Shown here piece by piece: positions 3,806-43,275 of a stretch of 64,000 bases of DNA (within the stretch, counting starts at the first letter, position 1; each line of letters starts with the position of its first letter). The position numbers were made by a program, and so were the translations under genes. Under the pieces are notes generated by a model. That model did no database searches. It was given only the letters and a program-made list of their open reading frames with translations, and was not told where the DNA came from. Location of the stretch: positions 186,001-250,000 of the forward strand of contig WVZY01000022.1 of assembly GCA_011772205.1 (NCBI GenBank), given 5' to 3'. Source of the DNA: Candidatus Latescibacterota bacterium. GTDB taxonomy: Bacteria; Krumholzibacteriota; Krumholzibacteriia; WVZY01.

Positions 3806-5596
3806 ATGATGCGGCAAATGCGACAGAACACGAAAATTATTCTATGGATCGTCGTGGTTTCCTTCGTGTTGACGATCTTCGCCGTGTGGGGTATGGATCT
3901 CCGCACAGGTTCTTCCGGTCAAGATCCCAGCATTCTCGGAAGAGTCAACGGCGTTGCAATCACCCGGGCCCATTACCAGGCCGTGTACGAGCAGCTGGCA
4001 AGTGAGTACCGGGCTCTTTCCCCCGACGGACAGCTGAGCTATTCTCAGCTCGATCTCATCCAGAAGCAGACCTGGGATAACATCGTCATCGCAATCCTCA
4101 CTGATCAGCAGATCGAGAAGCTAGGAATCACCGTCACGGATGAGGAGATTCTCAACTTTCTGAGAACTACGCCTCCACCGGAGATTCAGCAGTATTTCAT
4201 GGATGAAGAAGGCAATTTCGACTATCAAGCCTACCAGAGAGCGCTCAATAATCCCGAAGCCGACTGGACGAGTCTCGAGAACCTCGCCAGACAGCGAATT
4301 CCTCGGCTAAAGCTCAACCAGTACCTCGCAGTGCAGGTTCATGTGAGCAACGACGAAATCCGACAAGCTTACGAAGAAGAATACACAAAAATCACATTCC
4401 AGTACGTCGAGATTCCCATCGAAACCGAAGACGTTGAAGGATACGAGCCCACGGAGGAGGAAATTCAGACCTACTACAACGAGCACCTCGACGAATACAC
4501 TGATGACGAGAAGGCTTCTCTCGAGATCGTCAAGATCGACATTACCCCGAGCCCATCGGACGTGGATGACATCCTCTATACGCTCGGCGTCATCCGAAGC
4601 CAGATTCTGTCCGGAGAGGAATTCGCCACGCTGGCGCAAACATACTCCGAAGCACCAACCGGAAAAGAAGGCGGGGCCACCGGTTGGATCGGCGAAGGCC
4701 AGCGAGATCCGAAAGTCATTGAGACGCTCGCCTCTCTCGATGATGGCGGCATCAGCGAGCCCGTTGAGGCGGCGGACGGTTACTATATCTTGCAGCGCAT
4801 CGAAGCCCGGACGGGAGAAGATGGATCCTCTGAATTCAGTGCCAATGAGATCTTTATCAAGCTCCGCGCCGGTTCCGCCACGACTGATTCACTCCTAGTT
4901 CTCGCCAATGATTTGCAGGAAAAAGCACAATCAGTCGGTCTCCGCGAGGCTGCAAAAGCCAATAACCTTGAGGTGCTTGTTCCCAAACCCATCTACCAGA
5001 ACTTTCCACTGGAGGACATCGGTTTCGTCCCCGCGATCAATGAATTCGCGTTCTCCAACGAAAAAGGATCGCTGAGCAGGGTTTTGAGGGACGAAACTCA
5101 CTACTATATCTGTCAGCTCATGGATAGGATTCCCGCAACTCCAAAACCGATTGCCGAAGTAAGAGAGGGCATCTCCAAAACAATGGCTAACGAACACAAA
5201 AAGAAAATCGCCTGGCGCAAGGCGGATGGGTTGCACCGGCAATCGGGAATTATCGGATTCGCTGCGGCCGCCGAGGCTCACAATCGAGAGAGCCAGACTA
5301 TCGATTCTTTGCGGGTAAACGATAGCGGGGAACCATTCGGCCCAAGAAGCGCGATAGCTAAAACAGCTCTTTCCCTCAATTTAAGGGAAATTTCTCCTCC
5401 CATCGAATGGATAGGAAGCTACTACGTCGTCCAGCTAATGAGTCGATCGGCCGTTGATGAGGATGATTTTCGGAAGAACGCGCCTACGATCAGCAACAGG
5501 CTTTATCAGGAAAAAATCCAGAGATACATAGCTTACTGGTATGAGAATCTGGAGAAGAGCAGCAACATAGAGGATTACAGAAGCAGCTTATTATGA
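3806..5596 (+). CDS. PpiD/SurA-like periplasmic peptidyl-prolyl isomerase, membrane anchored
   Basis: This 596-residue protein probably helps fold exported and outer-membrane proteins. It has a short cytoplasmic N-terminus (MMRQMRQNTK), one transmembrane helix at residues ~11-32, and a SurA_N-type helical region (GRVNGVAITRAHYQAVYEQL). A parvulin domain follows around residues 236-340 (FATLAQTYSEAPTGKEGGATGWIG, then GYYILQRIEAR). The ~250-residue C-terminal part may hold a second, degenerate parvulin-like unit. This SurA_N-plus-parvulin order matches PpiD. GGAG at 3791-3794 serves the start; two adjacent ATGs (3806, 3809) are possible. It is a monocistronic plus-strand gene between minus-strand operons. 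The symbol is withheld because orthology to ppiD is not proven. Confidence 0.85.
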   Translation: MMRQMRQNTKIILWIVVVSFVLTIFAVWGMDLRTGSSGQDPSILGRVNGVAITRAHYQAVYEQLASEYRALSPDGQLSYSQLDLIQKQTWDNIVIAILTDQQIEKLGITVTDEEILNFLRTTPPPEIQQYFMDEEGNFDYQAYQRALNNPEADWTSLENLARQRIPRLKLNQYLAVQVHVSNDEIRQAYEEEYTKITFQYVEIPIETEDVEGYEPTEEEIQTYYNEHLDEYTDDEKASLEIVKIDITPSPSDVDDILYTLGVIRSQILSGEEFATLAQTYSEAPTGKEGGATGWIGEGQRDPKVIETLASLDDGGISEPVEAADGYYILQRIEARTGEDGSSEFSANEIFIKLRAGSATTDSLLVLANDLQEKAQSVGLREAAKANNLEVLVPKPIYQNFPLEDIGFVPAINEFAFSNEKGSLSRVLRDETHYYICQLMDRIPATPKPIAEVREGISKTMANEHKKKIAWRKADGLHRQSGIIGFAAAAEAHNRESQTIDSLRVNDSGEPFGPRSAIAKTALSLNLREISPPIEWIGSYYVVQLMSRSAVDEDDFRKNAPTISNRLYQEKIQRYIAYWYENLEKSSNIEDYRSSLL

Positions 5597-34372: not shown

Positions 34373-35539
34373 ATGAAGATTGCTGTCGTCACTCAATCTT
34401 ACTATCCTCGACCGGGTGGCGTCACTGAACATGCGCATCACACCGCATTGGAGCTTCGAAAACGCGGACACACCGTTTCGATTTTCACAGCTAACTTCGG
34501 CTCGGATCCACATGCGGATCCTGGAGTATTACGTTTCGGCAGGAACGTCCTGGTCCCCCATCACGGGGCTTGGGTTAACATGACCGTCGGCATGCGTCTC
34601 GGCAGACAATTACGAGACGCTCTTAGGGAATTCGATCCAAACATCGTTCACACTCACTGCCCCCTCGTTCCCACTCTTCCGCTGTTTGCCATACACACGG
34701 CCCCTTCGAACGCCGCAATCGTAGGGACCTTCCACGCGGCCGCAGAAACTAGCCCCGGATACAGCCTCTTCAGGCGACCTCTGGCCAAATTCGCCGAGCG
34801 AATCCACACACGAATCGCCGTGTCCGAAGCGGCACGCTGCCTCGCACAGAAATATTTCCCTGGGCGCTATGAGGTCCTGCCCAATGGAATCGACTGCCAG
34901 CGCTTTGCGCCCCGCATTGAACCTTTTGAACGTTTCCAGGATGATGCGTTCAATGTTCTCTTTGTTGGCAGGATGGATAGGCGCAAGGGTCTCAAATACC
35001 TCTTCAGCGCGATCTCGATCGTAGCAAACGCAACCAGCAAACGCGTTCGGCTGATCGTGGTAGGGGAAAACAGCCTTCGGAGATACTTGTTGCCGAGACT
35101 GGACCGCAAGGTTGAACTTCATTTCGCAGGGATCGTTTCGAGAGATATCCTCCCAAGATACTATGCATCCTGTGATATATTCTGCTCTCCCGCCGTAGAA
35201 AAGGAAAGCTTTGGCATCGTCCTGCTCGAAGCAATGGCATCAGGAGTGCCTGTAGTGGGAACATCGATTCCTGGATACCTGAGCCTTCTCGAGCACGGGC
35301 AGAATGCGCTCGTCGTCCCACCGCGGGACCCGCAGTCTTTCGCCGATGCAATTATCCACCTGCTGGAAGATGATTTGCTTAGACTAAAACTGCGGAAGCG
35401 TGGCATCGAATTCGCCGGGCAATTCAGGTGGGATCTGATCACGGCCCGCTTGGAACAGCTTTACCGTGACACGCTTTCGCAAGGTCGAGCTGAGATTCCC
35501 ATCGAAGAAACTTACAAAAGTGCCAACCTAACCGTGTAG
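34373..35539 (+). CDS. GT4-family glycosyltransferase
   Basis: A GT-B fold transferase of 388 residues. N-terminal MKIAVVTQSYYPRPGGVTEHAHHTALELRKRGHTV is typical of the PimA-like GT4 branch. The nucleotide-sugar side has FVGRMDRRKGLKYL and ESFGIVLLEAMASGVPVVGT (the E-x7-E motif). GGGGGAG precedes the ATG by 6 nt. Its pairing with an LpxL-like acyltransferase recalls PimA-PatA, so glycolipid assembly is plausible; acceptor and sugar are unknown. Confidence 0.9.
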   Translation: MKIAVVTQSYYPRPGGVTEHAHHTALELRKRGHTVSIFTANFGSDPHADPGVLRFGRNVLVPHHGAWVNMTVGMRLGRQLRDALREFDPNIVHTHCPLVPTLPLFAIHTAPSNAAIVGTFHAAAETSPGYSLFRRPLAKFAERIHTRIAVSEAARCLAQKYFPGRYEVLPNGIDCQRFAPRIEPFERFQDDAFNVLFVGRMDRRKGLKYLFSAISIVANATSKRVRLIVVGENSLRRYLLPRLDRKVELHFAGIVSRDILPRYYASCDIFCSPAVEKESFGIVLLEAMASGVPVVGTSIPGYLSLLEHGQNALVVPPRDPQSFADAIIHLLEDDLLRLKLRKRGIEFAGQFRWDLITARLEQLYRDTLSQGRAEIPIEETYKSANLTV

Positions 35540-41225: not shown

Positions 41226-41436
41226 CCATCTTGCCTCTCCAATCCCTTCCCATTCTGGCACTGCGCGATCAACCGCACTCAGACAAACGCCGTTTACCGT
41301 TAAAAAATAAACTGTGATGCACATCGCTTAAAGTTTTACATCAAGGATTCGTTCAATTCCTTAGTCACGTAACGCATTTCCGGCATGTTTCACAGCCTCC
41401 CCTTATCGATAGCATGCAGCACTGCAGGCCGTGGCG
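41226..41436. other. Intergenic region between rpmB and the RNA promoter
   Basis: No firm gene. On the minus strand a 16-codon frame (41336-41386, MPEMRYVTKELNESLM) has GGAGG 9 nt upstream and might be a tiny protein or chance. No clear terminator for rpmB is visible. Confidence 0.35.
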
Positions 41437-41465
41437 TTGACAACCGTCATTTTTGCGTCTACAAT
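41437..41465 (+). promoter_or_regulatory. Near-perfect sigma70 promoter with no protein gene behind it
   Basis: TTGACA (41437-41442), exactly 17 nt, TACAAT (41460-41465) on the plus strand: 11 of 12 consensus positions. It drives towards the 3' end of a minus-strand TPR gene. The predicted start is 41471-41472, exactly the first base of a long RNA stem. Confidence 0.75.
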
Positions 41466-41470
41466 TACTA

Positions 41471-41580
41471 TTGAAGGATTCTCGGGAAATTGTTCGCCGG
41501 TCTTATCTGGGACAAAATCTTCCCTCTTCCTGAAACCTCGTTCCAAGAAATATCGGATACGTTTCCCTGGGGTCCTTCAA
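41471..41580 (+). ncRNA. Candidate structured small RNA (~110 nt), class unknown
   Basis: Starting at the predicted +1, positions 41471-41490 can pair with 41561-41580 as a helix of 19 pairs with one mismatch (C41483/U41568). TTGAAGGA pairs with TCCTTCAA and GGGAAA with TTTCCC; the bases between pair mostly as U-G wobbles. These wobbles would be A-C mismatches on the other strand, which supports plus-strand transcription. The ~70-nt apical part includes a small hairpin (41490-41495 with 41510-41515). It does not match the SRP RNA GGAA-loop domain, tmRNA or RNase P cores; a short 6S-like rod is possible. No clear terminator; A/T-rich sequence follows. Confidence 0.45.
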
Positions 41581-41619
41581 AAATTTGTGCCCTACAGAGA
41601 TAACAGCCTCCAAACTGCA

Positions 41620-43275
41620 TTAAGCATCCTCTAAATCCATCTTTTCCACAGTACGCAGCGTCCTCGCAACCAGATTGCATGGATATCGCCCAAGGAATTT
41701 CTCAAGGAGTTGGTTTGCCTCGTTAGTGCTCCCTTCTCTCCGGAGCGCAATCACGAGACCGAACACCGCATCAGCGAAATCAGGATTTATTGAAAGACTC
41801 TCCTTGTAAGCATCCTTGGCTCGAGGAACGTCGCCCAGCCTTAAGTATATATCTCCCAATATCTTATGAAGATCCGCATAATCTCTCTGCACCTCGATCG
41901 ATTCCCCAACCAGCTTCTTGGCCCTCTTGAGATCTCCCAACCCTAACCACGCTTGTGCAAGCTTCTTTTTCGCTTCCAAATATTCTGGATTGATTTTCAG
42001 CGCTTGCTCAAAGCACTTCCTCGCAGCCTCCAAGTCACCTGATTCGAGCAACGAACATCCCAAACAACAAAATCCATCTGCGTGGCTCGGGCTGTTCTTG
42101 ACAAACTGCTCGAAGCTTTGAACTGCTTTCGACCAATTCTTCTCCTCCATACTCAAAAGCCCGAAATCGAACTTAGCCTCAGTTAATGTAGGATTGAGAT
42201 CAAGCGCGTTTCTGAACGCCCTGCTCGCATCCTCGCCTCGGCCAAGGGCATGCAAGGTGAGTCCTCGAAGGTAATGCGCTTTCGCGTAAGTCGGAGAAAT
42301 CTCGATTGCCATGTCGAAAGAGGAGAGTGCTTCGCCGAATTCACCAAGCGTGATCTGAACGATGCCATAACAACAACGGATATCGGCATACCCGGGATTG
42401 AGCTCGCAGGAGCGTTCGAGATTCCGCTTGCTTTCGAGATAATCTGCTTTGTAAAAGAGAGCTATTCCTAAATAATATATTGCTTCCATGTAGTTCGGAT
42501 TCAACTTCAGCGCTGCTTTAAATGAAGACTCGGCAGAGTCGCAATTGCCACTTTCCAGGTAGGACAGCGCGAGTTTGCAATGGAGATCCGGATAGTCCGG
42601 TTTGAGATCCACCGCTTTCTTGAAGCTATCGATCGCCGCCGGGAAATCCCCTCGGTTGAAAGCGTTTGTTCCCTCTTTCACAGCCGCTTCGTATGTGGCG
42701 TTCTCGAGCGCAGCTTTCTTGAGATCCTGGAGAACCGGTAAGTCGAACGCTTTCGAGTCGAGATGATCGATTAGGAAATGACTGAATGGATTTGGGCTGG
42801 TTCGACTCAGCTGGACAGCCCGAGAGAAACAATCCTTGGCGTTCTCGAAGTACCCGGCGTCGTGAAAAGCGATGCCCAGATAACATGTCGCTTCGGCATA
42901 ATCAGGATTTAGCTCTGTGGCCCTTCTGAGATGCTCAACAGCTTGGTCGAGATCCCCTTTCTGATGGTGTACAACACCCAGATAATAGAAGAGATCGGGA
43001 TAGTGCGGATTCTCTGCCTTCGATGCGTTGAAGTGGAACAGAGCTTTGTCCAGATTCCCCCTATAGAATTCGGCGATACCGAGCTTGGAGTGGGCCTCGG
43101 CGGCGTAAAACGCACCGAGCTTCGCGATGGGACTCGCACGGCTCTTGGACTCGGTGATCACCTCTTCCAGGGCCTTTACAGCTTTATCGTAGTCCCCTTC
43201 ATTGAAGTATTTAATGCCCTTCCGGTAGTTCTCACTCGCGGCGTTGCGGCGAAATAGTTTTGTCCAGAATGCCAC
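41620..43275 (-). CDS. Large TPR-repeat protein downstream of ftsZ
   Basis: A 551-residue protein consisting largely of tetratricopeptide repeats (about twelve, e.g. PDLFYYLGVVHHQKGDLDQAVEHLRRATELNP, ADGFCCLGCSLLESGDLEAARKCFEQALKINP). There is an N-terminal basic leader (MAFWTKLFRRNAASENYRKG) and no obvious signal peptide, so it is probably a cytoplasmic scaffold. GTG start (43273-43275) with AGGAGG 4 nt upstream. It begins 13 nt after the ftsZ stop and so is the last gene of the dcw operon, suggesting a link to division. Several unpaired Cys are present. Confidence 0.85.
   Translation of the reverse strand: MAFWTKLFRRNAASENYRKGIKYFNEGDYDKAVKALEEVITESKSRASPIAKLGAFYAAEAHSKLGIAEFYRGNLDKALFHFNASKAENPHYPDLFYYLGVVHHQKGDLDQAVEHLRRATELNPDYAEATCYLGIAFHDAGYFENAKDCFSRAVQLSRTSPNPFSHFLIDHLDSKAFDLPVLQDLKKAALENATYEAAVKEGTNAFNRGDFPAAIDSFKKAVDLKPDYPDLHCKLALSYLESGNCDSAESSFKAALKLNPNYMEAIYYLGIALFYKADYLESKRNLERSCELNPGYADIRCCYGIVQITLGEFGEALSSFDMAIEISPTYAKAHYLRGLTLHALGRGEDASRAFRNALDLNPTLTEAKFDFGLLSMEEKNWSKAVQSFEQFVKNSPSHADGFCCLGCSLLESGDLEAARKCFEQALKINPEYLEAKKKLAQAWLGLGDLKRAKKLVGESIEVQRDYADLHKILGDIYLRLGDVPRAKDAYKESLSINPDFADAVFGLVIALRREGSTNEANQLLEKFLGRYPCNLVARTLRTVEKMDLEDA

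What the first reader, a model, noticed from the sequence alone, without database searches (positions are those of the whole stretch)
41437..41580. Candidate novel small RNA: near-perfect promoter whose +1 is the base of a 20-position stem
Seen directly: TTGACA-N17-TACAAT on the plus strand with no protein gene behind it. From the predicted start (41471-41472) the sequence folds back on 41561-41580 with 19 of 20 positions paired. Several pairs are U-G wobbles that are only possible on the plus strand, so promoter strand and folding strand agree. The RNA would end antisense-adjacent to the stop of the TPR gene behind ftsZ and may act on that mRNA, or be a rod-shaped polymerase-binding RNA. I could not match it to SRP, tmRNA, RNase P or typical 6S RNA.
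Basis: partly seen in the sequence, partly recalled or inferred. Interest (0 to 1): 0.75.

Follow-up and report, generated by a model that had tools for sequence, protein, structure and literature searches.

The report
Paired small RNAs in Krumholzibacteriota bacteria
The predicted small RNA is real and conserved, and its exposed loop matches, uniquely in the genome and with co-evolving base pairs, a second previously undescribed RNA that looks switched on by a different kind of promoter, so this looks like a two-RNA control circuit in bacteria that appear to lack the usual RNA helper protein Hfq.

Summary
In detail: TTGACA-N17-TACAAT (41437-41465), then 41471-41490 pairing with 41561-41580 at 19 of 20 positions. 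It is not chance. The same RNA ("RNA1"), with a 17-nt-spacer promoter in every case, occurs in all 7 held genomes of its order (Krumholzibacteriota/Krumholzibacteriia by record titles) and was not detected in the other 73 genomes searched. The stem covaries (9 of 28 pairs with changes on both sides, 0/500 shuffles).

RNA1 is not 6S: there is no Rfam match, and these genomes carry a normal 6S elsewhere. It is not a TPR-gene antisense: it stops 39 nt short, and one relative keeps RNA1 but lacks the TPR gene there.

The main result lies outside the given coordinates. RNA1's conserved CU-rich apical loop (CCUCUUCCUG) is complementary over 15-21 bp to a second undescribed, structured ~270-nt RNA ("RNA2", own genome contig C12:~34428-34699, minus). 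RNA2 has a sigma54-type promoter and is present in exactly the same 7 genomes. The intermolecular helix covaries (8 of 23 pairs, 0/500). In the 4.1-Mb genome the 18-mer complement occurs only at RNA2 and RNA1 itself. Hfq was not found; sigma54 is present.

Most likely RNA1 is a constitutive antisense/sponge partner of a sigma54-controlled regulatory RNA. The direction of regulation is inferred.

The parts
41437..41465 (+). sigma70-type promoter of RNA1 (TTGACA-N17-TACAAT)
   Evidence: same 17-nt-spacer promoter (TTGACA/G ... TAnAnT) upstream of all seven orthologues
41471..41580 (+). RNA1, about 110-nt structured non-coding RNA (5' end expected at about 41470-41473; 3' end not determined)
41471..41490 (+). 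5' arm of closing stem P1
   Evidence: 19 of 20 positions paired; 9 pairs with changes on both sides across 7 genomes
41561..41580 (+). 3' arm of closing stem P1; followed by a U run in relatives G003 and G006 and a weaker U-rich stretch in G001, not clearly in the window
41508..41513 (+). 5' strand of apical helix P3 (UGGGAC)
   Evidence: pairs with 41540-41545
41540..41545 (+). 3' strand of apical helix P3 (GUUCCA)
41514..41539 (+). single-stranded CU-rich apical loop; CCUCUUCCUG identical in all 7 genomes; predicted 90% unpaired in the window RNA
41517..41534 (+). pairing region (seed): AUCUUCCCUCUUCCUGAA, 18 contiguous pairs (1 G.U) with RNA2 of the same genome at G000:C12:34621-34638 (minus), which lies outside the window

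Best explanation
RNA1 is a sigma70-transcribed, trans-acting base-pairing small RNA of the order. Its rod-like stem presents a 26-nt CU-rich loop. The loop pairs over 15-21 bp with the GA-rich 5' domain of RNA2, a second, about 270-nt structured RNA that is probably transcribed from a sigma54 promoter and ends in an intrinsic terminator. RNA2's site overlaps the 3' arm of RNA2's own first hairpin. RNA1's loop repeats the 5' arm (UGUGUUC) in most genomes, so pairing would start on RNA2's AGGAAGAGG stretch and displace the hairpin arm. The likely outcome is sequestration or degradation of RNA2, so that the constitutive RNA1 sets a threshold for the sigma54-induced RNA2 (a sponge or anti-sRNA). 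Shown by comparative sequence: both RNAs are conserved, structured and co-distributed, and the intermolecular helix covaries. Inferred: transcription, the actual contact in cells, strand displacement, and the direction of regulation.
For: RNA1 in 7/7 genomes of the order, not detected in 73 others. Stem covariation 9/28 pairs, 0/500 shuffles. RNA2 in the same 7 genomes with strong matches only there; its structure covaries at 19/54 pairs, 0/500. Sigma54-type element TGGMA-N6-TTGC upstream of RNA2 in all 7 and RpoN in all 7. Longest RNA1-RNA2 helix 15-21 bp in every cognate pair at the same aligned site of RNA2. Cognate pairing beats re-assigned partners in all but 4 of 5040 permutations (the 4 include the true one). 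Intermolecular covariation: 8 of 23 pairs changed on both sides, 0/500 shuffles, slid registers 0-4; for example G006 RNA1 CCUGUAUCCCG with RNA2 CGGGAUACAGG, against GUGUUC with GAACAC in most. In the own genome the 18-mer complement (G.U allowed, up to 1 mismatch) occurs only at RNA2 and at RNA1 itself. The loop core is predicted unpaired at 0.59-0.98; estimated net binding -16 to -24 kcal/mol.
Against: No transcript data. Only seven genomes, several of them fragmented metagenome assemblies. The RNA2 site is only partly accessible in predicted folds (core unpaired 0.11-0.63), and full cofold gains are small in G003, G004 and G005. In the window the RNA1 3' end has no clear U-tract terminator. 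Permutation and shuffle tests do not fully remove shared ancestry. Shuffled RNA2 occasionally gives 15-18-bp helices (9 of 700), so single-genome complementarity alone would be weak. The direction of regulation is not tested.
Confidence: 0.7

Rival explanations
1. The regulator is RNA2: a sigma54-induced RNA acts as the sponge that removes RNA1, and RNA1's CU-rich loop normally blocks purine-rich ribosome-binding sites of mRNAs.
For: CCUCUUCCUG resembles an anti-Shine-Dalgarno seed; the pairing evidence is symmetrical.
Against: No other conserved site for CAGGAAGAGG upstream of a start codon was seen across the 7 genomes; numbers are close to the reversed-pattern control. The flanks of the loop co-evolve with RNA2 specifically, as expected if RNA2 is the main partner.
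Confidence: 0.22
2. RNA1 is a short 6S-like RNA that binds RNA polymerase.
For: Rod shape with a long closing stem starting at +1.
Against: No match to any Rfam family up to E = 10; a canonical 6S (RF00013, 72 bits) is present elsewhere in the same genome and in 52 of 58 relatives; the 26-nt apical loop with a fixed CU-rich sequence takes the place of 6S's bubble and apical hairpin.
Confidence: 0.03
3. RNA1 is a cis-acting antisense or terminator element for the TPR/ftsZ operon behind it.
For: It lies tail to tail with the TPR gene; read-through would be antisense.
Against: It ends 39 nt short of the TPR stop codon; G002 has RNA1 but no TPR gene there; the most conserved part is the loop, not the region near the gene; it has its own conserved promoter.
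Confidence: 0.04

Closest known systems
CjNC140 / CjNC110 of Campylobacter jejuni (PMC10470494)
   Same: Two trans-encoded RNAs in a bacterium without Hfq; a CU-rich stem-loop of one binds a GA-rich stem-loop of the other; the GA-rich RNA is suspected to be sigma54-dependent; sponge-type relation proposed.
   Different: No sequence relation tested or expected; different phylum; here RNA2 is a larger structured RNA and the intermolecular helix shows covariation across genera.
Sponge / anti-sRNAs described for enterobacteria (e.g. the leuZ 3' external transcribed spacer against RyhB, named in PMC10470494)
   Same: One RNA titrates another by base pairing.
   Different: That sponge is a by-product of tRNA processing; RNA1 has its own conserved strong promoter and fold. 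Hfq was not found here, though only one family model was used.
6S RNA (RF00013)
   Same: Rod-like, sigma70-transcribed, long closing stem.
   Different: Length, missing bubble and apical hairpin, no model match; a true 6S exists elsewhere in the genome.

Membership tests
6S RNA (RF00013) | Matches the 6S covariance model | tested here: not met
   No Rfam hit up to E = 10 in 41300-41750; 6S of this genome is at G000:C30:92172-92354
6S RNA (RF00013) | Binds sigma70 RNA polymerase and templates product RNAs | not testable with these tools
   needs biochemistry
SRP RNA, tmRNA, RNase P RNA and other curated RNA families | Matches an Rfam model at the gathering score | tested here: not met
   0 of 4227 families in the whole window; no tRNA or tmRNA
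cis-antisense RNA of the TPR gene | Overlaps the gene on the opposite strand and co-occurs with it | tested here: not met
   39-nt gap to the stop codon; gene absent in G002 where RNA1 is kept
trans-acting base-pairing sRNA / sponge pair | Independent promoter and conserved intergenic transcript | tested here: met
   promoter conserved in 7/7; structure covaries; transcription itself not observed
trans-acting base-pairing sRNA / sponge pair | Conserved accessible seed complementary to a trans-encoded RNA, with covariation | tested here: met
   15-21 bp in 7/7, 8 of 23 intermolecular pairs covary, unique in own genome; loop core unpaired 0.59-0.98
trans-acting base-pairing sRNA / sponge pair | Changes level or activity of the partner RNA | not testable with these tools
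   needs expression experiments
Hfq-dependent sRNA | Genome encodes Hfq | tested here: not met
   PF17209 absent from 7/7 genomes, controls positive
sigma54-dependent transcript (RNA2) | -24/-12 element and RpoN in the genome | tested here: met
   TGG[C/A]A-N6-TTGC in 7/7, RpoN in 7/7; the window genome's copy is the weakest (TGGAA)

The most novel reading that the evidence does not exclude
An order-wide, Hfq-independent two-RNA circuit: a housekeeping (sigma70) RNA with a presented loop opens a hairpin of a sigma54-controlled, about 270-nt structured RNA by toehold strand displacement, so the pair compares the output of two sigma factors at the RNA level; RNA2 would itself be a new large regulatory RNA class with an invariant core (GUGAAUCAUAGCCCUUGCCCUUAGC).
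Probability: 0.35. Interest if true: 0.85.

Novelty: new variant of a known kind. Interest (0 to 1): 0.72.

Why it matters
Two new RNA families in a phylum for which the held literature contains no small-RNA study, joined by an intermolecular helix whose co-evolution can be read from sequence alone. Such clear covariation between two separately encoded RNAs is seldom available (my judgement, not a search result). It would show that sponge-type RNA-RNA control linking sigma70 and sigma54 programmes exists far from Proteobacteria and in genomes where no Hfq was found, and it is directly testable with two synthetic RNAs.

Tried and rejected
Rfam at gathering and permissive thresholds for RNA1 and RNA2 (only an implausible snoRNA at E = 0.14). 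6S and TPR-antisense readings (see rivals). First alignment with two relatives in the wrong orientation, corrected. Full-length duplexfold of RNA1 on RNA2 ignores internal structure and was replaced by loop-only and contiguous-helix measures. mRNA targets with CAGGAAGAGG before a start codon: no conserved gene seen, only RNA2. Targets for RNA2's invariant CCCUUGCCCUU loop: no site conserved beyond one pair of congeneric genomes. Genome-wide pattern scan for RNA1 outside the order: of the 36 stretches only those from the six relatives scored as RNA1; one weak extra (L099, E = 0.035) is taken as chance. The apparent second copy in G003 is one locus split over two overlapping contigs.

Full report
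OBSERVATION. The promoter TTGACA-N17-TACAAT is at 41437-41465, and 41471-41490 pairs with 41561-41580 at 19 of 20 positions with one C.U mismatch. The 110-nt RNA folds to -36.8 kcal/mol, z = -2.9. The promoter scan finds only this site in the region. Rfam gives nothing, in the window at gathering thresholds or around the RNA at E up to 10.

CONSERVATION. A nucleotide search in relatives found three clear orthologues in the same family. A covariance model built from four sequences extended this to all six held members of the family and the one other held genome of the order. It found none in the remaining 73 genomes (class and phylum gave the same 80 genomes). The RNA always lies beside recG/rpmB on one side and TPR/ftsZ on the other, with two exceptions in neighbours: G002 lacks the TPR gene (RNA1 between rpmB and ftsZ) and G003 lacks rpmB there. 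All seven have a promoter TTGAC[A/G]-N17-TAnAnT. On the seven-sequence MAFFT alignment the structure is 89% paired; 9 of 28 pairs show changes on both sides (shuffles 3.9 +/- 1.3, 0 of 500), and slid registers give 0-5. Plus-strand U.G pairs conserved in 7 of 7 and CM scores of 116 against 21 bits fix the strand.

ANATOMY. RNA1 is a rod: P1 (41471-41490/41561-41580), a weak middle part, P3 (UGGGAC 41508-41513 / GUUCCA 41540-41545), and a 26-nt loop whose CCUCUUCCUG is identical in all seven. In G003 and G006 the stem is followed by a U run, and in G001 by a weaker U-rich stretch, so the stem may also serve as terminator; in the window this is not evident.

SECOND RNA. I searched the seven genomes for the complement of the loop. 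In four genomes the hit lay in one homologous intergenic region. A nucleotide search with that region found it in all seven genomes of the order, with only weak scattered matches in the other 71 genomes searched. RNA2 begins just after a sigma54-type element (TGGCAC-N5-TTGC and variants, 7/7), ends in a strong hairpin, mostly with a U run, and contains the invariant core GTGAATCATAGCCCTTGCCCTTAGC. Its consensus structure covaries (19 of 54 pairs, 0 of 500 shuffles). It has no credible Rfam match and is not a tRNA or tmRNA. In the own genome it lies on another contig (C12, about 34428-34699, minus), between a small putatively secreted protein gene downstream of a selB-like gene and a convergent NFACT-like gene (gene names from sequence, not tested by a family search). 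RpoN is present in all seven; Hfq was not found in any.

THE RNA1-RNA2 HELIX. In each genome the longest contiguous WC/GU helix between RNA1 and RNA2 is 15-21 bp, and it joins the RNA1 loop to the same aligned site of RNA2. For the window genome it is 18 bp: RNA1 AUCUUCCCUCUUCCUGAA (41517-41534) with RNA2 UUCGGGAAGAGGGAAGAU; with other genomes' RNA2 it drops to 10-14. Loop-site energies of cognate pairs are matched by only 4 of 5040 re-assignments, the identity included. In the concatenated alignment 8 of 23 intermolecular pairs have changes on both sides (shuffles 3.4 +/- 1.4, 0 of 500; slid registers 0-4). Examples: position +2 G-C to A-U in G000 and G006; +4 U-A to C-G in G006; +3 U-A to C-G in G002; -3 U-A to A-U in G001. 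The 18-mer complement with G.U allowed and up to one mismatch occurs in the 4.13-Mb genome only at RNA2 and at RNA1's own antisense. These results are independent of the RNA1 fold. A caveat: the 5' half of the RNA2 site also pairs inside RNA2 (UGUGUUCC/GGAACACA), so part of its variation is shared with that hairpin. In G002, however, the site changed to GGAGCACA while the RNA2 5' arm stayed UGUGUUCC and RNA1 changed to match.

MECHANISM. The loop core of RNA1 is predicted 59-98% unpaired, and net binding after opening both sites is -16 to -24 kcal/mol. In most of the genomes RNA1's UGUGUUC equals the 5' arm of RNA2's first hairpin, so pairing from the AGGAAGAGG stretch could displace that arm (inference). 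The simplest function is titration or destabilisation of a sigma54-controlled RNA by a constitutive partner. The reverse direction is possible. My estimates: real ncRNA 0.95; pairs with RNA2 0.88; RNA1 antagonises RNA2 rather than the reverse about 0.65 given pairing. The overall confidence of 0.7 is for the pair with RNA1 as the sigma70-side partner.

COMPARISON. The closest analogue is CjNC140/CjNC110 in Campylobacter jejuni: a CU-rich loop against a GA-rich loop, no Hfq, and the GA-rich RNA suspected to be under sigma54 (PMC10470494). It works alike; membership is not claimed, as no homology was tested. No paper in the held library combines Krumholzibacter* with small RNA or non-coding RNA.

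Noticed in passing
G000:C12:34428-34699 (minus), in locus L137/L128; outside the window: RNA2, an undescribed sigma54-type-promoter structured RNA with the invariant core GTGAATCATAGCCCTTGCCCTTAGC (hairpin loop CCCTTGCCCTT); the core's own partner (RNA or protein) is unknown.
   Followed up: partly
G000:C30:92172-92354 (minus), locus L050: Canonical 6S RNA (RF00013) of the same genome; 6S was found in 52 of 58 relatives but in none of the four held f5-family genomes (and missing in G016 and G048).
   Followed up: no
L076 (G002) 4592-4769: The TPR gene that follows ftsZ in relatives is missing in G002; RNA1 sits directly between ftsZ and rpmB.
   Followed up: yes
L085 6230-6585 (G003): rpmB is absent from its usual place beside RNA1 in G003; the locus is also split over two overlapping contigs.
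   Followed up: partly
L137 4366-4755 (minus): Small putatively secreted protein (129 aa, ending ...ESGYTEK) between a selB-like gene and RNA2; proteins with a similar C-terminus lie at the same place in the relatives.
   Followed up: no
L088 1820-1890 (G004), downstream of RNA1: A second small hairpin AACTGTTAACCTGACAGTTTTC after the RNA1 stem, possibly the terminator in that genome.
   Followed up: no
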